Positions 61 through 19,695 of a stretch of DNA of 64,000 bases are shown one piece after another. A program made the translations under genes and the position numbers. This DNA comes from Brucella rhizosphaerae (GTDB taxonomy: Bacteria; Pseudomonadota; Alphaproteobacteria; Rhizobiales; Rhizobiaceae): contig NZ_NNRK01000033.1 of NCBI RefSeq assembly GCF_002252475.1, positions 62,001-126,000 of the forward strand, given 5' to 3'. The notes under the pieces were generated by a model that saw only the letters and a program-made list of their open reading frames with translations, made no database searches and had not been told where the DNA came from. How positions within the stretch are numbered: the stretch's first letter is position 1; each line of letters starts with the position of its first letter.

Positions 61-2370
61 TTAAAACTGTGGCGGCATATCCGCTTGCGGAGGCATTAAC
101 CCCTCTGCTTCTGGTGGCATTCCTTCACTTTGAGTGAAGCCCTGCATTGCCTGCTGCATTGCTGCCGCTGCTTCTTGATCTGCCTGTGCCTGCTGCTGGC
201 GGTTCTGTTCGCGTGCGACTTGCATTTGCACCTGCGCATCTTGTTCCGCGCTTGCAAAATCCATGTCCATGCGCTTCGCTTCCTGCTCGGCTTTGATCGC
301 TGCCATATTTACTTGCGCGTTGTATTTGGCCGCGATTTCAGCACGCTTGAGTTCAAGATCGGCGAAGGCCAGGTCGCGAATGCGGTCGTTTTCCATGATG
401 AGTTTCTTCGCTTCAAACTCACGCTTTTCGCGTTCGGACTGCGCACGTAGTTCCGCCTTGGCCTTCTCAACCTCGATTAGACCGAGAGTGTCAGGGCTTG
501 GCTGTGGTGGCTGCGGTGGGGGTGGTGGCGGGATTGTTGCTGGATCTTGGAAGAAGGCGTTAGCGTTCTTAAAGCCTGCGTTCTCGGCTATACGCACAAG
601 CGTTTCATAAATGTGCTGCTGATTAACGAACGGCATCTGGCGTTCCATTGCCGTAAACTGGTTCTGCAAGATCATCTGGAGCGACATCATATTGCCGTCC
701 TTGTTCATCACGCCGAAAGCAACAGTTGCGGAAATGTCTAATTCCGGGTCCCATTCATCCACCAGCATCTTCTCGTACTTGCCAAGCAAGCGCGTAATCA
801 ACGCCTCTGCATCGTCTGGATATTGGATGAGAAGATCGATGATAATGCGGAACAAGTAGCGGTAGCCGGTATCTGCAAAATGGCGACAAACCATTTCAAC
901 AAGCATCTGACTTGCGTTTGCACGCTGGCTTGATGCTGTCGCTGTCGTGTTCTGCATGTCGCTGGCATTGATGCTCATCATCGCACCGCCAACGCCGGTT
1001 GTAAGTTCTGCTGTCTCTCTGATTTGCTCCATCACTGGCAAAGCCGAAGCGCCAGTAAATGGTGTGCTGATGAAGTTAATACCGGCATCAGGGCTTGTTG
1101 ATCGGATAGCAGCACCGGGAGCCAAGTTCAAAGCATCATCAAAACGCGTAACGTCTGGATTGACCACCTTAATCGGATGAACGTGCATATTGAGGTTATC
1201 AATAATACCGCGCTGCATCTTCGAAAGCAGTTCCTGCTCTGGGCCAACGCGATCTGCAATGCCCTGACCGAAGAGCGTGTTTGGCGTTACAAACGGGCAG
1301 AACGCAGCATATGGGTAGAATTTGCTTACTTCTTCATAGCCCAACACGACCGGATTGCTTTGAATATCGCCGGCAAGCGTAATGCGGTAATGACGGCGCT
1401 TTTCGCTCTCAATCGCCATGAACGTATAGATTTCATATACAAATACCTCGTCTTCAATATCGCTTATGCCTTGGTCAAAATTCAGCACTGATGCGCGTTG
1501 CACGCTAATGCCGCTTGTCTCGTCAGATGCGCTAGGAATGCCTTTTATCTTCTCAACATCGTGGCCCTGTTCGATAAGCATCTGGCGTCCTACGACTGCT
1601 TTATGCCCCTGCAACTTTGCGCGAATGCCGCCTGTTTGCTGGTCAAAGTCTGCGTCCTTTGAAACGATGAAGTTTTCAGGAGCGAGGTTCACTATGTTCA
1701 TTCTGCGCTGAGTGCGGATATGGCGAATTTTGAGGTCGTATAACTGCGGCTGCGGCATCAACTGCGCAAATGCAGCCATCGGGTCAGGGTTGTTTGGATC
1801 AGCAGGAGCCGGTGGAGCGCTATAAGGCTCGCTGGCTTCCTCAATGATGATCTTCCCTGCTTCTTCCTGTTCTTGGAAGAAGACTAGTTGCTCGTCCGTA
1901 ACGCCTTTGACCAACTGCGGGAGCAATTCCTCTTTGTGGGCTTTGAAGTCCACCATTACGATGCCAAGGCCAGTAATTGCAGCGTTCTTAACCCACGGAA
2001 GAAGCCAAGCAACATGACTGTTGAGGTCGCGAGCAACAAAATTCGCAACGTCGGTCTGCTGGATTGCAAGCGCTTCCTGATCTGCACGACTTGGGAGAAA
2101 TTCGACCACTTTCTTCTGCGTATCGAAGACGCGAATAATCTGACCTGTCATCCACTCGGTATGCTCTAGGACTTTCGGGACGATGTATTTGGAACGGCCC
2201 TTGATCGATGCATCACCCGCCATTGGCTTGCGCAGATACTGCTTGATTGCTTCTTCTTGTTTCAGTGCAATGTTATCGGTCGAAAAGCCCACAGCCTCGT
2301 TGACCAGACTTCCAATTTTGCGTGCTAGATCGTCGTCGCTCAGGAACTTCTTCTTATTTTTCTTAGCCAT
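61..2370 (-). CDS. Phage portal protein, P22-type
   Basis: Predicted portal: the dodecameric ring at one capsid vertex through which DNA is packaged and ejected. The 769-residue length and N-terminal half (loading region, then a long alpha/beta wing ending near residue 620) resemble P22-like portals of short-tailed phages. Residues 640-769 are proline-rich, then Glu/Gln/Ala-rich and coiled-coil-like, as expected for a barrel/tail segment. The start has a GAAAGG ribosome binding site. It lies 61 bases downstream of TerL in the same direction, the usual packaging order. The last 25 codons contain one copy of the 17-bp palindrome, read as FTQSE. An ATAAATA box sits 48 bases upstream of the start. 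Function is by family resemblance only. Confidence 0.85.
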   Translation of the reverse strand: MAKKNKKKFLSDDDLARKIGSLVNEAVGFSTDNIALKQEEAIKQYLRKPMAGDASIKGRSKYIVPKVLEHTEWMTGQIIRVFDTQKKVVEFLPSRADQEALAIQQTDVANFVARDLNSHVAWLLPWVKNAAITGLGIVMVDFKAHKEELLPQLVKGVTDEQLVFFQEQEEAGKIIIEEASEPYSAPPAPADPNNPDPMAAFAQLMPQPQLYDLKIRHIRTQRRMNIVNLAPENFIVSKDADFDQQTGGIRAKLQGHKAVVGRQMLIEQGHDVEKIKGIPSASDETSGISVQRASVLNFDQGISDIEDEVFVYEIYTFMAIESEKRRHYRITLAGDIQSNPVVLGYEEVSKFYPYAAFCPFVTPNTLFGQGIADRVGPEQELLSKMQRGIIDNLNMHVHPIKVVNPDVTRFDDALNLAPGAAIRSTSPDAGINFISTPFTGASALPVMEQIRETAELTTGVGGAMMSINASDMQNTTATASSQRANASQMLVEMVCRHFADTGYRYLFRIIIDLLIQYPDDAEALITRLLGKYEKMLVDEWDPELDISATVAFGVMNKDGNMMSLQMILQNQFTAMERQMPFVNQQHIYETLVRIAENAGFKNANAFFQDPATIPPPPPPQPPQPSPDTLGLIEVEKAKAELRAQSEREKREFEAKKLIMENDRIRDLAFADLELKRAEIAAKYNAQVNMAAIKAEQEAKRMDMDFASAEQDAQVQMQVAREQNRQQQAQADQEAAAAMQQAMQGFTQSEGMPPEAEGLMPPQADMPPQF
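123..139 (+). repeat. 17-bp palindrome, copy 1
   Basis: CTTCACT-TTG-AGTGAAG, a perfect 7-bp inverted repeat with a TTG spacer, lying inside the 3' end of the portal gene where the minus strand reads it as FTQSE. Confidence 0.9.
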
Positions 2371-2418
2371 AGCGCCTTTCGCCGCATTAATGCGGTTCTC
2401 GTTTTTGAATATTCCGGG

Positions 2419-2425
2419 TATTTAT
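2419..2425 (-). promoter_or_regulatory. ATAAATA box upstream of portal
   Basis: ATAAATA on the minus strand in the short TerL-portal gap, followed by CCCGG. It resembles the T4-type late promoter core (TATAAATA). That is an inference from recurrence at several late genes; no -35 element is evident. Confidence 0.4.
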
Positions 2426-2431
2426 TGGGGC

Positions 2432-3862
2432 TTATTCAAAACAACGCAGATCGCCGTAATCGACCGGACGCGTCCAATCGGCTGTAGTTCCAAGGCTCGT
2501 TGAGGACACTGCAAACGTCAGGCAGAGAGCATCGGCAAAGTCGGGCGAAGCGCCCATGCGTTTGCGGATAGACTTCTTGTCCTCGACCTTAACTTTGCCG
2601 TTTCGTTCCGTGTCGTAAGTTGGAAACGCCAACTCGTTGATGAGTTCTGAATGCTTTGGAATGCTGACATTGCCTTTGACGAACCAGTCTCGGCATTCCC
2701 ACCACAGTTGATCACGAAGGCGATTGAAAAACTCAGGTCGGCGCGTTGGCGTATTGGAAACGACAACCGCTTTTACCGGCACGCCGAGTTCTTTGAGCAT
2801 ACTGGCGATGCCGTTACCGATGCCGATGGCGTCAACGCAAACGAACTTCGGCTGCTCGGCTTTATCGGCAGTGAAATACAAGTCGCGCACTGCATAAGCG
2901 AGCGTTGCGGGTTCTAACCCTTTCCAGACCTTCGGATCGTCAAGCACAACATTGTCATGGCGCTTTATGAGAACGGAACGGTCGCCACCCTGACCAGCAG
3001 GGTCAAGCCCCCAGATTATCGGCTTGTTTGCCGCTGGAATAGCATCTGTATTGAATGCTGCTTCCTCGACCTTATTGCGTGGGATTAGTCCATCTTCATC
3101 GGATAGCGGAAACTCACCGAGGACCATCATGCGATATTCGCGTGAGAACTCCCCCCCGTAATCGGCCTTCGCTTCCTCTGCATCCTCTTGCGTCCATCCC
3201 GGCTTGTCGGAGGACTGGCCGTGAACCTTAGTCCACCTGTCGCTTATTGCGGGATCGTTCCATGTTTCCCAAAAACGACCGCTAGTTCTTGTCGGGTTGG
3301 AAATGAGGCAGAGTTTCGGGTTCTTATCGCGAAAAATACCTTTGAAGGCGTCAAACACTTCATCGGGAACACCTGTGGCCTCATCAACGAAAATGAAGTT
3401 GTTAGGCGCGTGAATACCTCGCGCATTTTCGATGTTCTCTTTGTTCGCCAACTTGAAGACGCCGAGGCAATCATTCGGGCGTGTCTTGCGCTCAACCTTG
3501 GTTGCTGTGGCATCGTATGCTTCCTTAATGTCTTCATCGGACATTTTGCCGTGAAGCATCAGAATTTCATTCCAAATATTTGTTTTAATCTGCTGCTCGG
3601 ACGGCCCGAAGATCGTAACCTTGACGTTGTCGTGACAGATCATGCACCACCAAAACACGACCGCCATAACGTGTGTCTTGCCGAAACCAGCACCACCTTT
3701 GAATGTGATGCGCTTGCTTCGTTGGAATGCTTCTGCAAATTCGATTTGCTTTGGGGAGAGTGTCGTTCCGAACAAGTGATGCGCGAAAAACGCGATATCC
3801 TCTTTGTATTTCGGAAATAAATGCTGCTGAAAAAATTGTGCCTTTTGAGCGGATAATGCCAT
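2432..3862 (-). CDS. Phage terminase large subunit (TerL)
   Basis: DNA-packaging ATPase/nuclease that docks on the portal. Walker A GGAGFGKT lies near residue 58 and Walker B FIFVDEAT near residue 155. The RNase H-like nuclease domain follows with GLDPAG near residue 285, VCVDAIG near 340, and a closing SPDFADAL near 440, giving the expected acidic residues. The ATG at 3862 is preferred over an upstream in-frame GTG because AAAGGTGG precedes it. It is read with the portal. The usual small-subunit partner is not upstream on this strand; a DUF5681 candidate is on the opposite strand at 4698-5099. An ATAAATA box lies 20 bases upstream of the start. Confidence 0.93.
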   Translation of the reverse strand: MALSAQKAQFFQQHLFPKYKEDIAFFAHHLFGTTLSPKQIEFAEAFQRSKRITFKGGAGFGKTHVMAVVFWWCMICHDNVKVTIFGPSEQQIKTNIWNEILMLHGKMSDEDIKEAYDATATKVERKTRPNDCLGVFKLANKENIENARGIHAPNNFIFVDEATGVPDEVFDAFKGIFRDKNPKLCLISNPTRTSGRFWETWNDPAISDRWTKVHGQSSDKPGWTQEDAEEAKADYGGEFSREYRMMVLGEFPLSDEDGLIPRNKVEEAAFNTDAIPAANKPIIWGLDPAGQGGDRSVLIKRHDNVVLDDPKVWKGLEPATLAYAVRDLYFTADKAEQPKFVCVDAIGIGNGIASMLKELGVPVKAVVVSNTPTRRPEFFNRLRDQLWWECRDWFVKGNVSIPKHSELINELAFPTYDTERNGKVKVEDKKSIRKRMGASPDFADALCLTFAVSSTSLGTTADWTRPVDYGDLRCFE

Positions 3863-3881
3863 TAATACCACCTTTCGGTGA

Positions 3882-3888
3882 TATTTAT
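3882..3888 (-). promoter_or_regulatory. ATAAATA box upstream of terL
   Basis: AAATAAATA on the minus strand 20 bases before the TerL start codon, overlapping the stop of the holin-like gene. It belongs to the recurrent late-gene box set. Confidence 0.4.
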
Positions 3889-4283
3889 TTCCCCACGTCT
3901 TTTTCCTGCTTTTCGTCTTCTACGAGCGTTCCGACGATGCCTTTCAGGTCTGCGCTCTTTGGTAATTTTGGATCACGCGCCCAACGCTGCACCATGCGAA
4001 TTGCACCTTCAGCCAGATAAACGCCGATCAAGCCTATACCGAACGCAATGCCGTTGTTCGTTGACAGGTCAGTGTCAGCCACCTGAAAATATTTGGTCAG
4101 GATGGGTGTCAGGTAGACCGCGCAAGCAGTACCGACAAACCCGCCTGTAAGGGTTTCCCACTTCGATTGAGCCTTGACCATCATTGTGCGGACAATCGCA
4201 CCGGCAAGGCCAGCAAACATGTGAGCGTGATTAATTCCAAGCGAGTTGAGCAGCGATAGTATCGCGGCGAGAATTGTAGTCAT
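3885..4283 (-). CDS. Holin-like small phage membrane protein
   Basis: About 132 residues with a hydrophobic N-terminal helix (residues 1-14), a second hydrophobic stretch around residues 45-62 (TGGFVGTACAVYLTP), and a third around 78-95 (GIAFGIGLIGVYLAEG), then a charged lysine-rich tail. This two-to-three helix layout with a charged C-terminus fits phage holins that release endolysin, but no specific family is recognised. Start chosen at 4283 because AAGGGG lies seven bases upstream; a longer reading frame to 4421 has no ribosome binding site. It is immediately upstream of terL (22 bases), which is unusual for a holin, so a head-assembly or other membrane role is possible. Confidence 0.55.
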   Translation of the reverse strand: MTTILAAILSLLNSLGINHAHMFAGLAGAIVRTMMVKAQSKWETLTGGFVGTACAVYLTPILTKYFQVADTDLSTNNGIAFGIGLIGVYLAEGAIRMVQRWARDPKLPKSADLKGIVGTLVEDEKQEKDVGK

Positions 4284-4402
4284 GTTCAGCCCCTTCATCG
4301 GGACCGAAATGCCCCTCTCCGTATTTAATTGGATGGGCTTAATTGGCGCTCTGACTGGCTTCTGGACGGCACACGTCCACACTGATTTCTGGCGTCCTCT
4401 TA

Positions 4403-4409
4403 ATAAATA
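4403..4409 (+). promoter_or_regulatory. ATAAATA box, plus strand
   Basis: TAATAAATAC 23 bases before the start at 4433; the only plus-strand member of the box set. It faces the divergent holin/terL operon across a 150-base gap. Confidence 0.4.
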
Positions 4410-4432
4410 CAAGACAACCAAGGAGGGAATTC

Positions 4433-4705
4433 ATGAAGATTAAAATGGCAATCGCACAGGGCTATGTCGAAGGCGAAATTAAAGGCTTTATCGAAGCAAA
4501 CGCAGGGTTAAGTGCAAGCGAGGCAACAGCGCAATGGGTGGAACAGAAATACGGTCGTTGGATCAAAGAGAACCTAGAAACCGAATATGACATTCGCCTT
4601 ACAGACTCCGACACTTCATTTGTGATCGGTTTTCCAACCGAGGAATTAGCGCTGAAATATCGAGAACTGCTTGGCGGTCATGTGATCGGAGACAAGGATG
4701 CCTAA
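4433..4705 (+). CDS. Small phage protein, unknown
   Basis: 90 residues, acidic and soluble, no recognised domain. The start has an excellent ribosome binding site (AAGGAGG, seven bases upstream). Its 3' end overlaps the next gene by eight bases, so the two are translationally linked. It is the first gene of the rightward transcript, divergent from the packaging operon, and its pairing with a TerS-like gene hints at a packaging or head role. That is context only. Confidence 0.75.
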   Translation: MKIKMAIAQGYVEGEIKGFIEANAGLSASEATAQWVEQKYGRWIKENLETEYDIRLTDSDTSFVIGFPTEELALKYRELLGGHVIGDKDA

Positions 4706-5099
4706 GAGCGATAACAAACATTATCCGCCGTCTCGTCTTGCTGGATTGAAACCATATAAGAAGGGTCAGTCGGGCAATCCGAAAGGCCGTCCACCGACAC
4801 CACCTGAGATTAAGGAAGCGCTGCAAGGTCACTCGCTGGAAGCCGTCAACAAGGCTTACGACTTGATGATGAATAGCACGAACGAAATGGTACAATTGAA
4901 GGCTACTGAAATGTTCCTATCGCCATTCGTGAGCAAAGCGGCGCAGAAGGTCGATATTGACCATCAAGTGACACACAACATGAGCGACCTGATTGCAAAG
5001 ATGAATGCGTCAATGGCTGCTGTCGGACAAGACACTAAGGTCATCGACGTAACGCCGGTCGAAAACATTTCCCCTAAAAAACCGGACGCTTCACTTTGA
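4698..5099 (+). CDS. DUF5681-type protein, candidate terminase small subunit
   Basis: 133 residues. The N-terminal segment GQSGNPKGRPP (about residues 24-34) is the signature of DUF5681 proteins, which commonly sit beside phage terminases and are thought to act as small subunits that recognise the packaging site. A helical region follows (residues 38-80) and a variable tail. It overlaps the previous gene by eight bases. It is encoded divergently from TerL, which is uncommon. The stop codon is embedded in the spacer of a 17-bp palindrome, and a second palindrome follows 36 bases on. DUF membership is confident; the packaging role is inferred. Confidence 0.7.
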   Translation: MPKSDNKHYPPSRLAGLKPYKKGQSGNPKGRPPTPPEIKEALQGHSLEAVNKAYDLMMNSTNEMVQLKATEMFLSPFVSKAAQKVDIDHQVTHNMSDLIAKMNASMAAVGQDTKVIDVTPVENISPKKPDASL

Positions 5100-5105
5100 G
5101 TGAAG
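5089..5105 (+). repeat. 17-bp palindrome, copy 2
   Basis: Perfect CTTCACT-TTG-AGTGAAG. The arms extend to nine bases here (CG on the left, CG on the right). The TGA stop of the DUF5681 gene falls in its centre. Confidence 0.92.
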
Positions 5106-5470
5106 CGGACGCGTCTCACACCATCTTCACTTTGAGTGAAGCATCTCCAAGCCCCCTTCCAATTCCATTTAAGAGTAAATTAATCCTATATTTGGTTAAC
5201 ATAAATTAATACTTGCGACACAAGCAAGGCATAGATAGAACCTCCCTGTCTTGCCGAGTAATCGGCCTGACCGTTCTTTGAAAAGTCATATGTAAAGTCG
5301 TCATGTTACGTCATTCAACTAGTCCTTTAATGGACATGCGTTCCGGCAGGTTGGTGATTGTTTCTACCGTTCAACGGGAAACACGCGGCGGAAAAAATCT
5401 TGGTCATCCGAAGGAAACTTCACGCACCCGACCGAGGTGAAACGTGCAACAAACATGAAAGGACGCACAA
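5106..5470 (+). other. Gene-free 365-bp leader with inverted repeats
   Basis: Between the DUF5681 gene and the 307-residue gene. It holds palindrome copy 3, a short AT-rich stretch (5165-5210), CTTGC/GCAAG arms near 5213 and GCCGA-GTAA-TCGGC near 5258. It probably contains the promoter of the next gene, but no convincing -35/-10 pair was identified. Confidence 0.5.
5125..5141 (+). repeat. 17-bp palindrome, copy 3
   Basis: Perfect CTTCACT-TTG-AGTGAAG exactly 36 bases after copy 2, in the leader of the rightward gene at 5471. Confidence 0.92.
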
Positions 5471-6394
5471 ATGACTGAGATTAAGAATGTATCCAACAAC
5501 TCCATCGACGCTACCATTCTGGCTGAGAAGAAAGTGTTCGCCCTATCGCGTAGTGTGTTTTCACACCACGTATCAGAACTAGAAGTAGCGCCGTCGGCAA
5601 AGCAGTTTATTGTTGAACTCAACGACCAAGCCTCCGGGCTTGTCTTTGACGATAACAAGTTACGCGATGCGACATATCGCTATGTTGCTAAACTTGTGGA
5701 CGCAGCCCGCACTCTAACGGACGTTGAGTCCGAAACGAGGAAGGCATTCATCAAACTTTTCGAGGCTCTTTTTGGAACCAAGAATGTTGAGGAAGCGCTC
5801 AAAAGTAACAATCCTTATCTTATGCTTGTCCGCGCTGTGGACGGTAATTGGGTAACCAAAAAAGATGAGAAAGGTCGCGAACAAACCAAGTGGGCTCCTA
5901 ATCGTAGCAGCGAGAAATATTCGCATGTTTGCCGCTTCGCTATCGAATTTAATCTAACTGGCGACACTCTGCTGGAACACTTTATCACGCGCAAGTCGAT
6001 TACCTTTAATCGGAAAGAGACGAAGCAAACGATAAAGCCGACTATTAATGACATCATCAAAGCAGACCGCGAAATTCACACTACTGGACCGCGCGAAGTG
6101 ATGGACGAAAGCGAATGGAAGGGAGTTTTCGAACTCAATCCACTAGCAACAGTCCCATTCACAAAGCAAATTGAGAAAGCAATCAAGTTACATGAAGGCT
6201 ATCTCGGTGTCGCTCTCGTACGGGTAAAGGACGGTGAACTAGAAATTCTTGGCGACGCCGGTAAGGAAAGCAACGATGTATTGCGCTTGTTCAAGAACCA
6301 GCGCCCTGCGGTTGCTGAAACTTACTGGAAGGCCAAAGAAGAATCGCTAGATGTTGCAGAACTTGATCCGGCTCTGGCTCGCGATGTTAAGTAA
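5471..6394 (+). CDS. Phage protein of unknown function
   Basis: 307 residues, soluble, charged, no domain recognised. Residues 60-115 and 190-235 look helical. An internal basic patch (RKSITFNRKETKQTIKP, around 175-190) could contact nucleic acid. Start at 5471 supported by AAAGGA ten bases upstream. It follows the leader containing two copies of the 17-bp palindrome and is closed by a perfect 10-bp hairpin terminator at 6413-6440, so it looks like a single-gene transcription unit whose expression may be set by the palindromes. Confidence 0.75.
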   Translation: MTEIKNVSNNSIDATILAEKKVFALSRSVFSHHVSELEVAPSAKQFIVELNDQASGLVFDDNKLRDATYRYVAKLVDAARTLTDVESETRKAFIKLFEALFGTKNVEEALKSNNPYLMLVRAVDGNWVTKKDEKGREQTKWAPNRSSEKYSHVCRFAIEFNLTGDTLLEHFITRKSITFNRKETKQTIKPTINDIIKADREIHTTGPREVMDESEWKGVFELNPLATVPFTKQIEKAIKLHEGYLGVALVRVKDGELEILGDAGKESNDVLRLFKNQRPAVAETYWKAKEESLDVAELDPALARDVK

Positions 6395-6412
6395 TAGTTT
6401 TGGAGTTTACGA

Positions 6413-6440
6413 AGGGGATGGCATTGCCATCCCCTCTTTT
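6413..6440 (+). terminator. Intrinsic terminator after 307-residue gene
   Basis: AGGGGATGGC / GCCATCCCCT, a perfect 10-bp stem with loop ATT, followed by CTTTT. It sits 18 bases past the stop and directly before the ribosome binding site of the next gene. Confidence 0.9.
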
Positions 6441-6452
6441 GTTGGAGGTACT

Positions 6453-7052
6453 ATGTCACCCGATTATTCAATCATCTTTGCCGGTTTGCTTATCAGAGCA
6501 CGTTTTGAAAACGCTTTAGACGCATTGCTCAACCAAACTGCTATGCCAAAAAATTTCGTTGATGGTCACCTTACGGTGGAACAACGGATTTCATGGCATC
6601 GGGCAGTTGCGGTACGCAAGAAGGCTGAACGTGAGCAGCGTGAACTGTGTGATGCTCCCGAGGCATCAATTGAGTATTACAGGCGGTGTTCAGTCGTCGC
6701 TCGTGCTCTCACTCATCTGCATAGACGTTTTCGCAACGTTCGATATGCAATCGGCCTTGATCCTAGCAAGCGCCGAGTTGAGTTGAAGCGACTACGGCTT
6801 GAACACCGGCAGCATGAGGAAGCCTTTAGGGCCGTCTTTCGTGAAAAGAGGCTATTGTCTCAAGACGAAAAGGCCGCGTTATCTGTCCGTGAAAGCGGGA
6901 GATACCGTTGGGTTCCTCACATTGAAACCCGCGATCCTGCCGCATCTTGGCCTGTAGAGGTCAGGTATGCGGACGAAATTGCGCTGGTTAGAAAATGGAT
7001 TGCTGAAATCGATGATGCGATTGAGGGATATAAGGCAGCAGTATCGAGTTAA
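6453..7052 (+). CDS. Phage protein of unknown function
   Basis: 199 residues. Start at 6453 (MSPDYSIIF) chosen for GGAGG eight bases upstream; the frame stays open further upstream into the preceding gene and its terminator but without a ribosome binding site. A mostly helical, arginine- and glutamate-rich protein (residues 60-150) with no recognised domain, possibly coiled coil. It lies between two strong terminators, so it needs its own promoter or readthrough. Function unknown. Confidence 0.7.
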   Translation: MSPDYSIIFAGLLIRARFENALDALLNQTAMPKNFVDGHLTVEQRISWHRAVAVRKKAEREQRELCDAPEASIEYYRRCSVVARALTHLHRRFRNVRYAIGLDPSKRRVELKRLRLEHRQHEEAFRAVFREKRLLSQDEKAALSVRESGRYRWVPHIETRDPAASWPVEVRYADEIALVRKWIAEIDDAIEGYKAAVSS

Positions 7053-7055
7053 CAG

Positions 7056-7080
7056 AAGCCCCGGTTCGCCGGGGCTTTTT
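7056..7080 (+). terminator. Intrinsic terminator
   Basis: AAGCCCCGG-TTCG-CCGGGGCTT followed by TTT; a 9-bp stem with a stable tetraloop. Confidence 0.95.
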
Positions 7081-7089
7081 CGTATATGG

Positions 7090-7106
7090 CTTCACTCTAA
7101 GTGAGG
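7090..7106 (+). repeat. 17-bp palindrome, copy 4 (degenerate)
   Basis: CTTCACT-CTA-AGTGAGG: left arm intact, spacer CTA instead of TTG, one change in the right arm. It lies immediately before the ATG at 7111 and covers its ribosome binding site (GTGAGG), so a bound factor could block expression. Confidence 0.7.
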
Positions 7107-7110
7107 CAGA

Positions 7111-7638
7111 ATGAGGCGGGGCATGTTCACAAAGAAACTTACAATTTCACGAGTTTTCGAGCGTATAGACGCATTACGACTAGAGGCAGTGGCAAACGGG
7201 TATTGTTGCTTTAACTATAATGATCGTTTTCGCTATCACGGTGAAACCACAAATAAATTTAGGTCATCACCTTTCAATCCTTCTCTAGAAAACAAGTGGT
7301 CGGACGAATTAATTTTTCTGAGCACCATGCGAGAGAAGTATGGGGTCGATGGAGAAAACACGCTTCTTGTTTTTGAAGGCGTTGACCATCCCGATGTTAA
7401 CGTGGTTCTCGGAAGTATCGTCGGCTCTCGCCAAGCAAGTGTTGATATTAAAATCAAGGCTCACGAAACTGATGAGAGTCAACATGCGCATTTCTTGTTT
7501 ATGGGCTTTGAAGACGCGACTGATATGAAGCAGTTCATTGCCGAATATGGCCGGAAGTCCACCGACGAAATTCTTGGCTCCTCCGATATGCTGACCGAAA
7601 ATCACCTTCTCGAAGGTCTGGATGACTGGTTGGTTTGA
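7111..7638 (+). CDS. Phage protein of unknown function
   Basis: Up to 175 residues. The start is either 7111 (GAGG upstream) or 7123 (GGCGGGG upstream); both are plausible. The sequence mixes aromatic/polar N-terminal residues with a hydrophobic beta-rich centre (NTLLVFEGV, VNVVLGSIVG, around 85-105) and an acidic C-terminus (LLEGLDDWLV). No known domain recognised. It begins right after a terminator and a palindrome copy, so it is likely a separately controlled gene. Confidence 0.7.
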   Translation: MRRGMFTKKLTISRVFERIDALRLEAVANGYCCFNYNDRFRYHGETTNKFRSSPFNPSLENKWSDELIFLSTMREKYGVDGENTLLVFEGVDHPDVNVVLGSIVGSRQASVDIKIKAHETDESQHAHFLFMGFEDATDMKQFIAEYGRKSTDEILGSSDMLTENHLLEGLDDWLV

Positions 7639-7689
7639 ACCACGAGTTCAGTTTCTCCATTTGTTGACTTCGATTAAAAGGACAAAACT

Positions 7690-7980
7690 ATGAGTACTAG
7701 TGATACTCTTTTCGATACCGAACGTAGCCTGAACGAGTGCTGCGTGGACCCTTACACTAATGATGAAACTCGCCTGAAAATTAATCAAATCCGCTGCCAA
7801 ATGGTTGCTCTAAGACTGGAGTTAGACAGTTCTATCCCAATGGAGTGGCTTGAACGTAACCCAATATACGCCGCCGCAAAAAACGGCGATATTGGCCCGC
7901 ACGATGCTTATATGAACGGTGATGATCGAATTCTACTGCCATTCAGCATCGCGTTAGCGAAGGCATTTCCCCAACCGTAA
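7690..7980 (+). CDS. Small acidic phage protein, unknown
   Basis: 96 residues with an AAAGGA ribosome binding site. It contains conserved-looking Trp/Pro and Cys-Cys residues near the N-terminus (NECCVDPY) but no metal motif. Read in the same direction as the neighbours at 7111 and 8038 with short gaps, so probably cotranscribed. No function can be assigned. Confidence 0.65.
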   Translation: MSTSDTLFDTERSLNECCVDPYTNDETRLKINQIRCQMVALRLELDSSIPMEWLERNPIYAAAKNGDIGPHDAYMNGDDRILLPFSIALAKAFPQP

Positions 7981-8037
7981 ATTTTAGCGCTTATTATAGC
8001 GGATTGCCGATGTTCCCCTTCTGTTCTATATGAGGGC

Positions 8038-8298
8038 ATGACACGTACTATCCGATCCCTCGCAGATGCAGCACGCCATGGAATGTTTGTGGTCGCCACC
8101 TGTCGCGACTGCAAACGCGAAGCGCGATTTCTCGCGAGCGATCTTGCCGAAATGTTTGGATATGGTCGAAGTCTGAGCGGTTTACGGTTTAAATGTACTC
8201 GATGTGATTCTCGAAACTGCGAGGTGAAACCGGAACTTCCCGGTTTCGAGCGGCAGCATGAAACGGTCGTTTGGCGACCTGTGAAAGTTAAGGGCTAG
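8038..8298 (+). CDS. Small zinc-ribbon-like protein
   Basis: 86 residues with two Cys pairs, CRDC (about residues 22-25) and CTRC (about 53-56), plus a further Cys in SRNCEV, the spacing of a zinc ribbon. Such proteins are common in alphaproteobacterial genomes and phages and usually bind nucleic acid or another protein; the exact role is unknown. No strong ribosome binding site: the sequence before the ATG reads ATATGAGGGC, giving GAGGG only two to three bases away, so the start is slightly uncertain. It precedes the DUF2971 gene by 23 bases. Confidence 0.65.
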   Translation: MTRTIRSLADAARHGMFVVATCRDCKREARFLASDLAEMFGYGRSLSGLRFKCTRCDSRNCEVKPELPGFERQHETVVWRPVKVKG

Positions 8299-8321
8299 CA
8301 TCTACGAAGGGCGGGCATTTC

Positions 8322-10870: not shown

Positions 10871-11827
10871 TTAGGCAAGTGTTTCAGTGCTGGGAATTCT
10901 TTCTTCCGAGCGAGCGAGAAACAAAATAGTGGAAGCCGTCATATGAAGCATATAACTGGCAATCTCTTCAGGCACTTCAGTCGGTTGAACTCCTTGCCCG
11001 TGACCAGACGTCCTATTTCGTGCAGTGGGAATCCCACTCTCCAACCCCGCCCGTAGACATGAAAAATGTTGCTGCCAATACTTGGGAACTAGTTCATTCT
11101 CTAAACAAATCTGAATGAGGTCTTTTGCCGTTGATTTGGGCGAGAATATCCACCCGCGTTTCTCGCAGATTGCCTTCATGGTACTTTCGAAAGACTTTAG
11201 GCAGTCAACTAGAGCCTCTTTTGCTCGACCGTGACGATAGTGTTCGAAGGCACTTAAGAACTCCTGCTGAGCGCCGGAATATCCGCGACCTCTTAAGATC
11301 ACTAAAGCAGGCTTAACCGCTTCTACATGAACGAATTCGGAGTCTATTCGAACTACTTCATTACCTACATACTCAAAACCAATCATCGCCCTCTTGAAGC
11401 GATGATTTATTTCCGCGATGGCAGCATTTGACTTTTCGCGCGCATCCATCAACCCTCGGTAATTAAATTGTGAAGTAAAACTATCTATAATATGCGCTAT
11501 TATCTCCACTGCATCTATGAATTTATCAACAGACGGCTCTTTGAGTAAGAACGATCGTAGGTCATTGAATTTATCCGCTGTAGACATTGTTGGAGAGAGT
11601 TCGAAAACGCCGTATTCGCGACGAAGAGTATCAACGATGTAATCGTATGCTGCACTAACATCCTGCTGATGTCGATTGTAATAACTGTTCCTGTCCCCCA
11701 AATTTTCTTCAACAATCATCCAAATTTGATTTCTTAATGCGTCAGGTACTTTATCGTAAACGTAGACATCCGTATCCTCTCCGCGTAATTCTTTTTGTCG
11801 CTCCGAATACAGTTTTGTTATAGCCAT
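10871..11827 (-). CDS. AbiJ_NTD4 / STM4504-CBY_0614 family protein with HEPN-like C-terminus (candidate abortive infection)
   Basis: About 318 residues. The N-terminus (YSERQKELRGEDTDVYVYD, near residues 6-25) is the hallmark of the STM4504/CBY_0614 family, whose N-terminal domain is classed with AbiJ N-terminal domain 4. The C-terminal third (about 180-300) resembles the Abi_C/HEPN region and has ARNRTSGHGQG near residue 270, the RN...HG pattern of HEPN ribonuclease-like folds. Family knowledge links such proteins to phage-defence islands and RNA cleavage. Start taken at the second of two consecutive ATGs (11827), five bases after GGCGG. Paired with the membrane protein downstream. Activity is untested. 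Confidence 0.75.
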   Translation of the reverse strand: MAITKLYSERQKELRGEDTDVYVYDKVPDALRNQIWMIVEENLGDRNSYYNRHQQDVSAAYDYIVDTLRREYGVFELSPTMSTADKFNDLRSFLLKEPSVDKFIDAVEIIAHIIDSFTSQFNYRGLMDAREKSNAAIAEINHRFKRAMIGFEYVGNEVVRIDSEFVHVEAVKPALVILRGRGYSGAQQEFLSAFEHYRHGRAKEALVDCLKSFESTMKAICEKRGWIFSPKSTAKDLIQICLENELVPKYWQQHFSCLRAGLESGIPTARNRTSGHGQGVQPTEVPEEIASYMLHMTASTILFLARSEERIPSTETLA

Positions 11828-11948
11828 CATCAACCGCCAGAATCGTTACTACCGAAAGATCAATTATAACTTTCGGGCGAAACTTCGAAAGACCGCTCAA
11901 CCGTAAATGGTCTGAAAGCAACAGTTTTTACAATCAAATTTGGCTGAC

Positions 11949-11993: not shown

Positions 11994-12620
11994 TTACATT
12001 CCTAGCCTGTGAAGCAAGCGCGTCACCTGTGTTGAGACCCATTGCTTCCCCTGTGCTGTCGGGATTTGCTTCGCATTAAGTTCTCTAGCAATTGCTGCTG
12101 GACCTACTGCGCCGCACTGTATGATGCTCTGGACAATGGGAAACACATGTTCGTCAAATGCATCTATGCGCGCTCTCGTGCTTGCTTGTGTGCCACCGAG
12201 TTTAACGCCACGTTCTTTAGCCGCTGCTAGTGCTGCTTTGGTTCGTTCTGAGATCATCCGGCGTTCTTTGTGCGCAAGGATCGCATATAGATGTAATTGA
12301 AACTCATCTGCATCCGGCATATCCGCACAACGAATGCGAACACCTTTCTCCATAAGCGATAGGATAAACGCTGCATTACGAGACAGGCGATCCAGTTTGG
12401 CAAATACCAGCGTGGCTTTATTCGCTCGTGCAAACTGCATTGCTGCTTGCAACTGGTCACGGTCATTGTTCTTGCCCGACTCAATGTCGGTGAACTCGGC
12501 TATCGGACTATAACCCGCACATGCTGCTCGTTGTGCCTCTAGACCAAGTCCGCTTTGACCTTGTTTAGCAGTCGATACGCGATAATAAGCAACGTAGTTT
12601 GCAGGTTGTGTAGGTTGCAT
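11994..12620 (-). CDS. Small serine recombinase (resolvase/invertase family)
   Basis: 208 residues. The N-terminal catalytic domain has YYRVSTAKQGQSGLGL (the Ser is the nucleophile, near residue 15) and KLDRLSRN (near 70-77), typical of the resolvase/invertase fold. The C-terminal 50 residues (GPAAIARELNAKQIPTAQGK) form a helix-turn-helix-like DNA-binding end. The ATG at 12620 is preferred because GAAGGAG lies eight bases upstream; an upstream TTG lacks support. It is far shorter than large phage serine integrases, so it more likely resolves or inverts local DNA than integrates the phage. The 45-bp repeat at its 3' end and another 2.7 kb away are possible substrates. Confidence 0.88.
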   Translation of the reverse strand: MQPTQPANYVAYYRVSTAKQGQSGLGLEAQRAACAGYSPIAEFTDIESGKNNDRDQLQAAMQFARANKATLVFAKLDRLSRNAAFILSLMEKGVRIRCADMPDADEFQLHLYAILAHKERRMISERTKAALAAAKERGVKLGGTQASTRARIDAFDEHVFPIVQSIIQCGAVGPAAIARELNAKQIPTAQGKQWVSTQVTRLLHRLGM

Positions 12621-12829
12621 AGGTTGTAACTCCTTCGGCACAGTCAACGCACATTGCTTGTGCCTATTGCCAAAAGAGTTTGATGCAAGAGCGAAGATCG
12701 GTTGCCCTTTGAAAACAAAGGCTTACAATGCACCTCTCGGATTTTCTACGAGACGGTGCTGTTTGCGCTGATTGTCTGTTTAAATCGCTATTGCGTGGAA
12801 TACCGCAGTGATCCCACACTGAACTTTAA
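12621..12829 (-). promoter_or_regulatory. Recombinase upstream region
   Basis: 209 bases without a gene between the recombinase start and the stop of the 213-residue gene; presumed to hold the recombinase promoter. No confident -35/-10 or operator was identified. Confidence 0.3.
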
Positions 12830-13545: not shown

Positions 13546-13725
13546 TTATTCGCGGCTAAGTTTCCAGAGGATTAAGTCTTCGCCCCTTGCATATGCTTGC
13601 AGCACGTCTTCCAACTCCCTCGCGTATTCGTCCTGGCGCTGTTTAATCTCCTGCATACGTTTTGCGTGGAAGCGGACATATGCAAGCAGGGACAGATCGT
13701 TGCGGGTTAGGTGTTCTGCTTTCAT
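13546..13725 (-). CDS. 59-residue helical protein overlapping endolysin
   Basis: A short frame beginning MKAEHLTRNDLSLLAYV and ending LWKLSRE. Its ATG overlaps the endolysin stop as ATGA, a translational-coupling arrangement. The middle (AKRMQEIKQRQDEYARELED) is a strong amphipathic/coiled-coil helix. No signal peptide or membrane segment, so it is not an obvious Rz-type spanin. It probably acts with the endolysin or in the same operon. Confidence 0.55.
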   Translation of the reverse strand: MKAEHLTRNDLSLLAYVRFHAKRMQEIKQRQDEYARELEDVLQAYARGEDLILWKLSRE

Positions 13726-14165
13726 CGCTTAAACAGGGCCACTTCTGCCTGTCTCCGTCTGGTTAAGCCGTTCAGGACTTTGCCGCCGGCTTTGTTCCAT
13801 TGCAGCCAACTACGTTCGATTTCCGCAATTGGTGCTCTACTGTTAATGCGCTTGAGTAGCGTTGACTTGCTCAGGTTCGTTTCGCCCAAGTTGTATGTAA
13901 AACTTACCAGTGCGCCATATTGGTTCTCTGTTAGCGGGACTTTCACCAGACGCTTAACTGCTGCCTCATATGTGGGAAGATCAAACTGCATTAGCAGTCG
14001 ATCTGCTTCACTTTGAGTGATGCGCTTTTTGCCAACGTCTGCTCGGCTTACCGTGCGTGTGTGTCCGTATCCGATGGTGGGAACTCCGGCCGGACAAACA
14101 TATGCTAGGAGTTTGCAGCCTTCGAAGTCCTTGATTAATTTAAGTGATGCTGTGTTTATTGCCAT
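13722..14165 (-). CDS. Phage endolysin, GH24 lysozyme family
   Basis: 147 residues, full length for the family. The N-terminal catalytic Glu is in DFEG (near residue 14), followed by PTIGYGHT (near 30-37) and a Thr/Asp cluster, matching T4/P22-type muramidases that cut glycan strands at lysis. No signal-anchor sequence, so it needs a holin. It has no ribosome binding site; an ATAAATA box ends only four bases before the ATG, implying either a leaderless message or readthrough. One palindrome copy (16 of 17) lies inside the gene and is read ITQSE. Confidence 0.92.
   Translation of the reverse strand: MAINTASLKLIKDFEGCKLLAYVCPAGVPTIGYGHTRTVSRADVGKKRITQSEADRLLMQFDLPTYEAAVKRLVKVPLTENQYGALVSFTYNLGETNLSKSTLLKRINSRAPIAEIERSWLQWNKAGGKVLNGLTRRRQAEVALFKR
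14006..14022 (+). repeat. 17-bp palindrome, copy 5
   Basis: CTTCACT-TTG-AGTGATG, one mismatch in the right arm, within the endolysin gene. Confidence 0.85.
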
Positions 14166-14239: not shown

Positions 14240-15406
14240 TTAATTTTCAATGCTCTTACTGGCTTGAAGAACACCAAACATTAACTTCTCTTCAACGCCA
14301 TCGAGCATGATATCGAAACTACTCAATATGAACTTTTGTAAATTCATTTGGTGCGTGTCGAACAACTGACCGCATGTTTTATCGAAACAAACATTGATTT
14401 TATCGTAGTACGACTTACGCGTTTGGAAATCATAGTGAGAGTAAATATTTGTTATGCGTCTTTTTAAAGTCTCTTCTACTTCACCTGCTATACCTTTACC
14501 GCTAGCATAGATATTCTTTGGCTCGTCTGATGCTGTAGCAAGTCCACCCATAACGCGCATTAGGTCGAGATTCTGATTATTAAATCCAAATCCGAGAAAC
14601 ACCAAGTTCCTCGCGCTATTGATCGCCGAATGTATCCGCTTGACCAACGCAATGTCTTGAGTTTGCTCCGTATAGGTCCGGATTCGACTCGAAACTTTTC
14701 TTAATGGGAAGTCATAAGAAACAGGCCGTCCAAATGCACACTCGTCATCTTGCGCCGCTCTCAAGTCTTCCGGTACCTTTCCAAGGTAGCCGTATGGATG
14801 AATGATCTCAATTTCGCTTACAATTTCGGCAGCATCTTTTCGTGAGGTGTCGAATGCGACCATAATGGATTCTATGAGGTAGTATTCGATACATCGATCA
14901 TAGTTAAAACAAATAATACGAACTTGCTTTGACAACTCTCTAGCATCGGTGACGCCATCAAATAATATGCGCGTGAATTTACCTATCCAAGTATCAGTTA
15001 TCTCAGACCGATTAAATGTTTCAATCATTCCCGGTATGTAGCCTTCAGTCCTCATTCTAGAATTCGCTTCGGCAGAAGCAATATTCCAAGCGATCAAGGC
15101 TTTCCCCATCTCAACTAAAACTTTATCATTTCTGTTGCGGTGAATAAATGCGTCAATACTGACACTTGTATCAATTGCTGTATGAATCCGTTGAAGCGCT
15201 TTATATATGAGTTCACCGCGAAACTCTGGCCAGCCTTGAGTCACTGCGTGAGCGAAATCCTCATTGGCAATCCTCGACCCGTAATTACGTTCGTATTCGA
15301 GTTTGCATGTTTCGCGAATCTGTTGGGCAAGTTGCGATCCCACCGGTAAGCCAAACTCAGCGCTCGCCCCTGCACCAATCACAAAAGTCGTTTTATCTCT
15401 AAACAT
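14240..15406 (-). CDS. SIR2-like domain protein (candidate NAD-degrading phage defence)
   Basis: About 388 residues. The sequence VIGAGASAEFGLPVG (residues 9-23) is the NAD-binding loop of SIR2-like proteins; ICFNYDRCIEYYL (near 165-177) carries the usual Asn/Asp, IIHPYGYLG (near 208) holds the catalytic-type His, and FLGFGFNNQNLDLM (near 283) matches the late SIR2 motif. SIR2-like proteins of this size occur in several anti-phage systems (for example ThsA- and DSR-type) that deplete NAD. Start at 15406 preferred; a GTG at 15436 is possible, neither with a strong ribosome binding site. It sits alone between the endonuclease I operon and the endolysin, as a moron would. Confidence 0.8.
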   Translation of the reverse strand: MFRDKTTFVIGAGASAEFGLPVGSQLAQQIRETCKLEYERNYGSRIANEDFAHAVTQGWPEFRGELIYKALQRIHTAIDTSVSIDAFIHRNRNDKVLVEMGKALIAWNIASAEANSRMRTEGYIPGMIETFNRSEITDTWIGKFTRILFDGVTDARELSKQVRIICFNYDRCIEYYLIESIMVAFDTSRKDAAEIVSEIEIIHPYGYLGKVPEDLRAAQDDECAFGRPVSYDFPLRKVSSRIRTYTEQTQDIALVKRIHSAINSARNLVFLGFGFNNQNLDLMRVMGGLATASDEPKNIYASGKGIAGEVEETLKRRITNIYSHYDFQTRKSYYDKINVCFDKTCGQLFDTHQMNLQKFILSSFDIMLDGVEEKLMFGVLQASKSIEN

Positions 15407-15521
15407 AATGCCCACGCTCGTCTGAGTTGAAGTCACATAATACTTTGAGTACCAATCGGATCAAAGACGCTTCGTGAAACAGGAATGGGTTAGACACAGA
15501 TAAGCAGTGGTATGTCGTCGA

Positions 15522-17338: not shown

Positions 17339-17545
17339 TCAAATGCTCTGGAAATGGGGGCTTTTGAATTGCGTTGCTGCTTGCTTGATCTGGGCCTTTT
17401 CCTTCTTCGCGGCTTTCGCTGCTTTCTGTCCCTGACTGATCTTCGCCTTATGCTCTGGCGTTAGTGTTCGTCCGGTCAGTGCTTTGGAAATTGCGGCTTT
17501 GTGTTCTGGAGTTTTGGCAACTCCCTTTTGTCCGTGTTCGCTCAT
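17339..17545 (-). CDS. Small NUMOD3-repeat protein without nuclease domain
   Basis: 68 residues. Two tandem NUMOD3-like modules are visible: TPEHKAAISKALTG (12-25) and TPEHKAKISQGQKA (29-42), then a Lys/Ala-rich helix. NUMOD3 is the helical DNA-binding module usually attached to GIY-YIG or HNH homing endonucleases; here no nuclease is present. GGAGG precedes the ATG. It is 130 bases downstream of the larger NUMOD3 protein on the same strand. Confidence 0.75.
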   Translation of the reverse strand: MSEHGQKGVAKTPEHKAAISKALTGRTLTPEHKAKISQGQKAAKAAKKEKAQIKQAATQFKSPHFQSI

Positions 17546-17675: not shown

Positions 17676-18308
17676 TTATTTATGCGCTTCACTTTGAGTG
17701 AAGGTTTTTGCTTCTCTGGCTGCGGCCCATCTGGCCTTCGCTGCTGCGGCTCGTTTAGCATTGGACTCAGCGGACTTCGGCTTGCCCTTAAGACCCGCTG
17801 ATATGTTTGCACAATGTGTCTCATCGTATTTCTGGCCGGTCTTTGTTTCGGAGATCTTGGTCCTCACCGACTCTGGGCGCTTCTTACCCAACTTCTTCGC
17901 CGCCATGCGCTTGCGTGTCTTTTCGCTGCGTTCTTCACCCGGCAGATAACGGCAGTTCTGCATGGACTCTTTCTGTCCGCAAATGATTGCGGTTGCATCG
18001 TTCATAACGCCATTGAGTTTGTCCTGACGACTAGCCCAACTCAAAACCAGTTTGAAATCCGAACGCTGGCGACCTTCAATTTTTCCTCTGAGGTAAGAAC
18101 GTGCAAGCGAGTTTAACTGATTGTTTGTGAACTTGTCGATGTATTGGGAGAAGGTCAGTTCAAACGTAACGCCCTGCTTTGTTTGGTAACGCGCACTGCG
18201 GGAATAGAACTTGAAAAGTTTTTCTGTGAAATCGTCCACCTTGTCGTTAGGGAAATCGACTAGTTTGTTATGGACTTGGATCGTAATCAAAATATGTTTC
18301 GGTTGCAT
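17676..18308 (-). CDS. NUMOD3-repeat DNA-binding phage protein
   Basis: 210 residues. The N-terminal 125 residues are not recognised with confidence. From about residue 128 there are four consecutive NUMOD3-like modules (RSEKTRKRMAAKKLG, RPESVRTKISETKTG, YDETHCANISAGLKG, KSAESNAKRAAAAKA), then an alanine-rich helix. GIY-YIG residues are absent, and no H-N-H triad is evident. AGGAG precedes the ATG. The last codons contain a palindrome copy read FTQSE. It may be a remnant or a repurposed homing endonuclease acting as a DNA-binding regulator. Confidence 0.7.
   Translation of the reverse strand: MQPKHILITIQVHNKLVDFPNDKVDDFTEKLFKFYSRSARYQTKQGVTFELTFSQYIDKFTNNQLNSLARSYLRGKIEGRQRSDFKLVLSWASRQDKLNGVMNDATAIICGQKESMQNCRYLPGEERSEKTRKRMAAKKLGKKRPESVRTKISETKTGQKYDETHCANISAGLKGKPKSAESNAKRAAAAKARWAAAREAKTFTQSEAHK
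17677..17683 (-). promoter_or_regulatory. ATAAATA box at 3' end of NUMOD3 gene
   Basis: GCATAAATAACA on the minus strand, overlapping the last codons and stop of the 210-residue gene and 130 bases upstream of the 68-residue gene. Confidence 0.35.
17687..17703 (+). repeat. 17-bp palindrome, copy 6
   Basis: Perfect CTTCACT-TTG-AGTGAAG, inside the 3' end of the 210-residue gene. Confidence 0.92.
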
Positions 18309-18370
18309 AGTGAACTCCTGAAAATTTGTTTGCCAATTGCAGAATTATCTCCAAATAATTTCTACACTTC

Positions 18371-18917: not shown

Positions 18918-19012
18918 GAACACACTCCTGATCTACTAGCGATCGCATGTGCTCTCCTGCACCGGGCAGTTGGTTTTTCCTCATTTTCCGACTGCCCCAC
19001 TATTTCCTCAAG

Positions 19013-19042
19013 CCCTTCCTGCTGCGTCAGGGAGGGTTTTTT
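19013..19042 (+). terminator. Intrinsic terminator
   Basis: CCCTTCCTG-CTGCGT-CAGGGAGGG (one G-U pair) followed by six T. It would end a plus-strand transcript coming from the gene-free region at 18.4-19.0 kb, hinting that something there is transcribed. Confidence 0.8.
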
Positions 19043-19105
19043 ATTTCTTGCGCATAAGTATCATTGGCAGTATTGCTATTTTTATTCTTATTCTCGGAGG
19101 GCAAT

Positions 19106-19303
19106 ATGACACTACAAGATGTTTTTAATGGTGTTATACAGATAATTACAATGATATGGACAGCAGACTTACAGACGCTTTGTGTTGCGATACTGGCGAT
19201 TGCTGCTGGTGTACTGTTGCTTGTGGTGAATGAACGAGCGAACAAGGCCGCTTACAGGTACGCACTGGACCGTAAAGCAAAGCGTAATGGCGCGAAGCAA
19301 TAA
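19106..19303 (+). CDS. Small single-helix membrane protein
   Basis: 65 residues from the ATG at 19106, chosen for GGAGG eight bases upstream. One membrane helix near residues 21-41 (LQTLCVAILAIAAGVLLLV), followed by a basic tail (DRKAKRNGAKQ). Size and layout fit a small phage membrane protein (holin, antiholin or exclusion factor), without a recognised family. The next gene overlaps or follows closely. Confidence 0.65.
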   Translation: MTLQDVFNGVIQIITMIWTADLQTLCVAILAIAAGVLLLVVNERANKAAYRYALDRKAKRNGAKQ

Positions 19304-19649
19304 CTTGTTGGGGGCAACAGTGAGCGACAAGCCCACACAATCTAAAAGTGATGAACTCAACACGTTGTTATGCCGATTGTATGAGTTGAGTTATAGCGGC
19401 GATCTCAAGCCAATGCAGAAGGTCACTAATCAGCGGCCTGTTATGTTTGATGCACTGGTGCAGCCGATTAGCCAGATGACCGTTTTAGATGAAATTCATC
19501 GCATCTTTGCAGATGAGATCGAGCCATTCTTGGCTCATGTTCGAAGTCTCGGTTACGAAGGTCAGTTTGCTTACGAAGGTATAACTGGCCGGATACAGAT
19601 GGATTTTGCAACGGCCCTGGACGCGTTGCGTTTCAAGCAAGCGCTATAA
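19287..19649 (+). CDS. Phage protein of unknown function
   Basis: 120 residues if started at the ATG 19287 (17-base overlap with the previous gene), or 109 from a GTG at 19320 with GGGGG upstream; the second is attractive. No domain recognised; the sequence is mildly acidic and helical. Closed by a 10-bp hairpin terminator 4 bases past the stop. Confidence 0.6.
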   Translation: MARSNNLLGATVSDKPTQSKSDELNTLLCRLYELSYSGDLKPMQKVTNQRPVMFDALVQPISQMTVLDEIHRIFADEIEPFLAHVRSLGYEGQFAYEGITGRIQMDFATALDALRFKQAL

Positions 19650-19652
19650 CAG

Positions 19653-19681
19653 GGGGAGTTCGTAGAACACGAACTCCCTTT
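19653..19681 (+). terminator. Hairpin terminator between convergent genes
   Basis: GGGAGTTCGT-AGAAC-ACGAACTCCC followed by TTT on the plus strand. The palindrome copy 7 overlaps its T-run. Confidence 0.85.
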
Positions 19682-19695
19682 CACTTTGAGTGAAG
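19679..19695 (+). repeat. 17-bp palindrome, copy 7
   Basis: TTTCACT-TTG-AGTGAAG, first base changed. It lies between the convergent stops at 19649 and 19697. Confidence 0.85.

What the first reader, a model, noticed from the sequence alone, without database searches (positions are those of the whole stretch)
123..19695. Seven copies of a 17-bp palindrome, all in one orientation, spread across the phage element
CTTCACT-TTG-AGTGAAG is perfect at 123, 5089, 5125 and 17687, one base off at 14006 and 19679, and degenerate at 7090. It appears both between genes and inside genes on the opposite strand. In all six good copies the asymmetric TTG spacer is on the plus strand, so the sites are polar although the arms are symmetric. 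I saw no copy in the core-chromosome part by eye. A dispersed, oriented operator set resembles the stoperators of mycobacteriophage L5-type repressors; a packaging or segregation signal is another option.
Basis: partly seen in the sequence, partly recalled or inferred. Interest (0 to 1): 0.78.

Follow-up and report, generated by a model that had tools for sequence, protein, structure and literature searches.

The report
Dispersed operator-like sites in a prophage
A virus dormant in a bacterial chromosome carries nine copies of one short mirror-image DNA word along its length, kept nearly unchanged in its relatives, most likely docking sites with which a virus protein of unknown type keeps the virus genes silent.

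Summary
In detail: in the window four perfect copies, two one base off, one degenerate. The genome adds two more in the same prophage, outside the window; the only others found are two with two mismatches. The arms look selected: in relatives 111 of 112 arm bases are identical, against 740 of 997 flanking positions. Polarity is not a property of the system: at two homologous places the three-base centre is inverted in a relative with the arms intact, and each of three relatives has a site running the other way. The dispersed set travels with an orphan two-gene module (5471-7052) that it brackets; two relatives also have a site inside its first gene, one of them a variant. Best reading: symmetric, dispersed operators of a phage-encoded silencer, most likely the 307-aa protein at 5471-6394, working like the inverted repeats of phiC31 rather than L5 stoperators. 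The same finder run on phiC31 recovers 16 dispersed copies, but the proteins are unrelated. Binding is inferred, not shown; no fold could be predicted. Against: relatives without the module still hold one to three sites.

The parts
123..139 (+). site, perfect; inside portal gene near its 3' end (codes F-T-Q-S-E on -)
   Evidence: arms 14/14 conserved in L029 although flanks are 73% identical
5089..5105 (+). site, perfect; holds the stop codon of the small-terminase-like gene 4698-5099
   Evidence: gene name from a weak PHROG match (E 0.00055)
5125..5141 (+). site, perfect; second of a pair whose starts are 36 bp apart, upstream of the 5471 gene; centre inverted (CAA) in relative G153
5269..5283 (+). 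leader element GACCGTTCTTTGAAA, found in the four phages that have the 5471 gene; boxA-like (name recalled)
5471..6394 (+). 307-aa orphan protein (P0001), proposed site-binding silencer
   Evidence: no Pfam, NCBIfam or PDB match, PHROG matches only weak (best E 0.074)
6351..7052 (+). 233-aa orphan protein (P0002), second gene of the module
7058..7080 (+). terminator-like hairpin with T run after P0002
   Evidence: read by eye; not listed by the mechanical scan
7090..7106 (.). degenerate site just after that hairpin and before the 7111 gene; perfect in relative G153
14006..14022 (+). site, 1 off; inside lysozyme gene 13722-14165 (I-T-Q-S-E on -)
17687..17703 (+). site, perfect; last codons of the 17676-18308 gene (FTQSEAHK stop)
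19679..19695 (+). site, 1 off; between two convergent genes, one base from the stop codon of 19697-20029

Best explanation
The palindromes are binding sites (dispersed operators) for a symmetric DNA-binding protein of the phage itself. The protein sits on the site pair upstream of its own operon and on sites scattered through the structural, lysis and late genes, and by blocking initiation at some sites and elongation at others keeps the prophage silent (immunity). The most likely binder is the 307-aa protein at 5471-6394, possibly with its partner at 6351-7052. Shown: the sites are real, confined to the phage, conserved in the arms above their flanks, tolerant of inversion in the centre, conserved in layout, and strongest where the module is present. 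Inferred: that the binder is this protein, that it represses, and that sites inside genes act as roadblocks.
For: Confinement to the prophage. Arms 111/112 against flanks 740/997 identical over 8 homologous site pairs (6 with G153, 2 with L029), Fisher p about 1.5e-12; the centre is identical in only 5 of 8. In four phages whose P0001 versions are 73, 38 and 32% identical to this one, the site nearest the P0001 leader is aligned in all four with centre TTG, CAA, TTA or TTG, and a site follows the P0002 terminator in all four. A site lies inside P0001 in G157 (perfect) and in G156 (variant CCTCACT-TTG-AGTGAGG, changed symmetrically in both arms). Of the element's ORFs compared, only P0001 and (by profile) P0002 have homologues in G153, G156 and G157 and in none of the other relatives held. 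Pfam shows no recognisable repressor among the 30 element ORFs scanned. Control: the same finder on phiC31 recovers 16 copies of a palindrome with core ACTCACGTGAGT (15 exact, 1 one off); set by eye against the annotation, 15 lie between genes and one inside repressor gene c, with one pair 39 bp apart. PMC4557955 (passages) says two such systems, phiC31 and, by its context, L5, have 18-30 dispersed repressor sites.
Against: No promoter-like match in 4900-7300 (0 found, 2.9 expected). Relatives without P0001 still hold sites with at most one arm mismatch: G158 2, G159 2, G160 3, G161 2, G167 1 (contexts of all but G161), more than chance by my own arithmetic (about 0.005 per 33 kb), including a perfect site over the integrase stop codon in three of them. 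Only four distinct phages carry the module, so co-occurrence is weak statistically. Absence of P0001 in G161 and G163-G166 rests on partial loci and on the pattern-limited scan.
Confidence: 0.5

Rival explanations
1. The sites are operators, but of another protein (host factor, or a phage protein shared by more relatives), and P0001/P0002 are merely regulated by them.
For: Sites also occur in ones, twos and threes in relatives lacking the module. The half-site TCACT..AGTGA stands next to a gene that looks like an XRE-type repressor (recalled from its sequence) in an unrelated prophage (L081), so an HTH-type dimer is plausible.
Against: No recognisable repressor among the 30 element ORFs scanned by Pfam. 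No other ORF compared shows the module's distribution. The host chromosome has no site with 0-1 mismatch outside the prophage, which argues against a host factor.
Confidence: 0.22
2. RNA hairpins: the palindromes act in transcripts, as 3'-end stabilisers, terminators or sites of an RNA-binding protein.
For: Six of nine sites lie within 80 bp of a stop codon (cutoff chosen after seeing the data). The 19-nt RNA folds to -9.3 kcal/mol with either centre. One variant in G156 changes both arms in a pairing-preserving way.
Against: In the one stretch scanned (4900-7300) only the 5089 site was listed as terminator-like, on the strand opposite to its gene. Some sites are mid-gene. The loop differs by strand (UUG or CAA) at genes of both directions. 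The arm sequence itself, not only pairing, is kept: 111/112.
Confidence: 0.1
3. A tiny mobile or spreading palindrome (like a REP or Rickettsia palindromic element, both recalled) copied into tolerated places near gene ends.
For: A relative has two copies in the portal tail (L029 12049 and 12130). Copies code F-T-Q-S-E near protein C-termini. Centre inversions look like hairpin-mediated events.
Against: Flanks diverge while arms do not, which points to selection rather than recent copying. The same gene-end position is occupied in different reading frames (DASL stop, DPHSK stop). No copy with 0-1 mismatch in the host chromosome outside the prophage.
Confidence: 0.1
4. Segregation (parS-like) or packaging (pac/cos-like) signal.
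For: Dispersed palindromes; two sites at the end of the small-terminase-like gene.
Against: No ParA/ParB match among the ORFs scanned by Pfam; one 295-aa tail protein has a weak PHROG match named ParB-like, outscored by tail families. The element carries a serine integrase and lies inside a 258-kb contig. A pac site would not be spread over more than 30 kb.
Confidence: 0.04

Closest known systems
phiC31 conserved inverted repeats (CIRs; name recalled) and repressor c
   Same: One short near-perfect palindrome dispersed over the phage, a close pair, copies just past gene ends, a copy inside the (here putative) repressor gene in two relatives; serine integrase here and an integrase in phiC31 (that it is of the serine kind is recalled).
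   Different: Different sequence and a three-base centre instead of none; P0001 (307 aa) unrelated to repressor c (683 aa; hhalign probability 0.2%). Five of nine sites are inside genes here, against one of 16 in phiC31.
Mycobacteriophage L5 / cluster A stoperators
   Same: Dispersed sites inside and between genes, proposed silencing of the prophage.
   Different: L5 sites are asymmetric 13-mers, bound by a monomer, oriented with transcription (PMC9283540, passages). Here palindromic, orientation not tied to transcription and inverted in relatives.
Mycobacteriophage BPs repressor operators
   Same: Palindromic operator sequence, with complete and partial operator sites elsewhere in the genome (PMC4557955, passages).
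   Different: BPs uses 12-bp half sites in adjacent pairs and integration-dependent immunity (same passages and abstract); that arrangement was not looked for systematically here, and the sites differ in sequence and length.

Membership tests
phiC31-type CIR immunity | many copies of one palindrome dispersed over the phage genome | tested here: met
   control
phiC31-type CIR immunity | repressor homologous to phiC31 gene c product | tested here: not met
   hhalign of A2 against repressor c: probability 0.2%, 7 columns
phiC31-type CIR immunity | site inside the repressor gene | tested here: inconclusive
   inside P0001 in G157 and (variant, two arm changes) G156; absent in this window and in G153; P0001 not shown to be a repressor
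phiC31-type CIR immunity | repressor binds the sites and confers immunity | not testable with these tools
   needs a bench test
L5-type stoperators | asymmetric site | tested here: not met
   palindromic arms conserved above flanks; definition from PMC9283540 (passages)
L5-type stoperators | orientation correlates with transcription | tested here: not met
   TTG on + at the end of the rightward gene 4698-5099 and inside leftward genes; centres inverted in relatives
L5-type stoperators | repressor homologous to the L5 repressor | not tested
   no L5 record under the two accessions tried
ParABS partition | ParA/ParB genes | tested here: not met
   no ParA/ParB among the 30 ORFs scanned by Pfam; one weak PHROG match named ParB-like in a tail protein

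The most novel reading that the evidence does not exclude
P0001 and P0002 are a new, fold-unknown class of phage silencer. It coats the prophage at dispersed palindromes, many written into coding sequence at tolerated places (protein C-termini, stop codons), and so represents an independent invention of genome-wide operator immunity in podovirus-like prophages of Alphaproteobacteria.
Probability: 0.3. Interest if true: 0.68.

Novelty: new variant of a known kind. Interest (0 to 1): 0.52.

Why it matters
In the papers whose passages I saw, genome-wide operator systems of temperate phages are named for phiC31, L5 and its kin, and BPs. This would be an unrelated case in a podovirus-like prophage group, with a natural experiment suggesting that the site centre can flip while the arms hardly change. 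It points to a small orphan gene pair as the regulator to test, and shows how operators can be accommodated inside genes.

Tried and rejected
L5-type polarity: rejected (centre inverted at homologous places). Coding coincidence: the F-T-Q-S-E frame recurs because the other frames of the 17-mer hold stops or give SLKVK (read); the intergenic copies exclude a protein motif as the cause. The lysozyme copy alone may have begun as ordinary codons. The homing-endonuclease-like (17676-18308), zinc-ribbon-like (8038-8298) and resolvase (11994-12647) proteins as binder: homologues occur in relatives without sites, G162 and G168; NUMOD3 protein 17339-17545: weak matches in G162 and G160 only, besides the close relative. 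De novo palindrome search in relatives lacking the module (G162, G167, G168, L041, L043, L044, L045, L047; the L entries are partial): no 7-bp-arm family of 3 or more copies, so no alternative operator set was seen; three-copy families of other GC-rich palindromes do occur in G157 and G159, so three copies alone prove little. Paired-site scans: viral contigs gave 5 stretches, the known phages plus L081, an unrelated prophage; genome contigs gave 34 stretches, 26 by their titles from Bacteroidota, seen as a listing only. P0001 homologues: none in 393 other family, 396 other order and 384 other class genomes (samples overlap in part), none in the phage collection or the plasmid collection, none confirmed among 76 pattern matches in genome contigs. 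Rfam: four matches up to E 1 in window 1-20500, none at its gathering score. 16S not found in this assembly, so the boxA idea could not be checked against the host rrn leader. No direct repeat of 9 bp or more between the two stretches tried as prophage ends. Literature: the 17-mer is in 0 papers of the held library; the other searches showed, in their listings, no account of this site; only passages of PMC5492332, PMC9283540 and PMC4557955 were seen.

Full report
What is there. The 17-mer CTTCACT-TTG-AGTGAAG is at every coordinate given: four perfect, two one base off, one degenerate (7090, one arm mismatch). The window starts at C26:62001 of a 4.9-Mb, 36-contig genome. The prophage reaches further left, to a serine integrase at C26:46391-48124 (phrog_95), and holds two more sites at C26:49509 and 52252. 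No other site with 0 or 1 mismatch exists in the genome, and only two with 2 mismatches. None of the 150 other family genomes searched has an exact copy. Its genes include a portal, a major head protein, a DNA ejection protein and a phage endonuclease I, a podovirus-like set. Annotated phage records are distant: 765 hold a terminase match, each under 60% identical, the best-ranked 34.6%; among those listed are Sinorhizobium phage phiM5 and Escherichia phage phiV10. The right end is taken to be just before the gene at window 20451-21845, which I recognise from recall as glmM; att sites were not found.

Relatives. Twenty-two viral stretches hold the exact 17-mer; several are single copies in contigs with no other link to this phage, about the number I would expect by chance in a collection of that size. 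The terminase finds 20 related loci. G151 and G152 carry the same terminase and P0001 as this prophage (100% identical). G153 (95% in terminase), G156 (57%) and G157 (54.5% over 453 aa) are increasingly distant and have 6, 4 and 3 sites (arms with at most 2 mismatches). G154 and G155 are fragments of a close relative with 4 sites each; their P0001 region is not in the loci held.

Selection on the arms, not the centre. For eight sites with a homologous place in G153 (six) or L029 (two), 111 of 112 arm bases are identical against 740 of 997 flanking positions; the centre is identical in 5 of 8. Centres were inverted in place twice: at the second site of the pair (TTG here, CAA in G153) and over the integrase stop codon (CAA in G158 and G159, TTG in G160 on the coding strand). 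This is what a symmetric dimer-binding site predicts. Polarity is 8 of 8 in this element; set in the window's orientation, at least one site runs the other way in each of G153, G156 and G157.

Placement. In four phages the site nearest the P0001 leader is aligned although much of the surrounding sequence is not. A first site precedes it in three of four. It contains the stop codon of the small-terminase-like gene in different frames: DASL-stop here and in G153, DPHSK-stop in G156. A site follows the P0002 terminator in all four (degenerate here, one arm mismatch in G157). A further site lies inside P0001, coding TLSE, in G157 (perfect) and in G156 (CCTCACT-TTG-AGTGAGG, a symmetric change of both arms). 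Six of nine sites here are within 80 bp of a stop codon (expected fraction 0.18, p about 0.002, cutoff chosen after looking, eight small ORFs left out).

The module. P0001 (5471-6394) and P0002 (6351-7052) have homologues in G153, G156 and G157 only among the relatives held, by tblastn for P0001 and by profiles built from the two closest copies alone (P0001: E 2e-60 and 2e-33; P0002: E 1e-5 and 3e-4, next best 0.09). No other ORF compared shows that distribution. A leader element GACYGTTCTTTGA(AA) was found in the same four phages and in no other of the records and loci searched, some of which are partial; it resembles a boxA antitermination element as I recall it. Neither protein has a Pfam match at a curated cut-off; P0001 has none in NCBIfam or the PDB and only weak PHROG matches. 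Thirty element ORFs were scanned by Pfam (ten each) and none is a recognisable repressor; most structural genes were scanned only with PHROGs and a few not at all. Relatives without the module were partly searched as loci rather than whole records (L041, L043, L044, L045, L047).

Control. The same palindrome finder run on phiC31 recovers 16 dispersed copies of one palindrome. Set by eye against the record's annotation, 15 are intergenic, one is inside repressor gene c, and one pair is 39 bp apart. I take these to be the CIRs (name recalled). PMC4557955 (passages) states that two systems, phiC31 and by its context L5, have 18-30 dispersed repressor sites. P0001 and repressor c are unrelated. 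So the layout works like phiC31; membership is not claimed. One difference counts against a close analogy: five of nine sites are inside genes here.

Against. Sites persist in relatives without the module (G158 2, G159 2, G160 3, G161 2, G167 1, with at most one arm mismatch). Two of the G160 copies sit in codons that may be ordinary (lysozyme ITQSEA, terminase-like LTRSEA), but the integrase-stop site is perfect in three phages and is unexplained unless these phages once had, or share, the binder. No promoter match was found by the simple scan. No fold could be obtained.

Noticed in passing
window 5269-5283: GACCGTTCTTTGAAA leader element, nearly invariant in four phages, boxA-like as recalled; suggests antitermination in the P0001-P0002 operon.
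   Followed up: partly
window 5330-5382: A 53-nt run of the P0001 leader is identical in G153 although the surroundings diverge; short conserved ORF or structured leader.
   Followed up: no
window 8322-9251, 10871-11833, 14240-15436: Possible anti-phage cargo: DUF2971/PDC-S31, AbiJ_NTD4-DUF7014/PDC-S32, SIR2-like.
   Followed up: partly
L029 12049 and 12130: The portal C-terminus of a relative carries two copies of the site in a repeated QAMQGFTQSE stretch.
   Followed up: partly
G158 31669, G159 12800, G160 1783: Perfect site over the integrase stop codon in three phages lacking the P0001 module, centre inverted in one.
   Followed up: partly
L081 8166-8271: Unrelated prophage with four TCACTNNNAGTGA-like sites (each 3 arm mismatches to ours) just upstream of a gene that looks XRE-type, sharing the half-site.
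   Followed up: partly
G168: Mosaic relative: resolvase 93% and endonuclease I 85% identical to the window's while head and tail genes are 24-57%.
   Followed up: no
G156 433-8590 and 49170-49258: A different palindrome family (arm CTCCCCC, 9 places) near both ends of the G156 record, outside the phage genes matched; probably host repeats.
   Followed up: no
L083, L093, L096 and others: Several paired TCACTNNNAGTGA stretches per locus in Marinifilum genomes (listing only).
   Followed up: no
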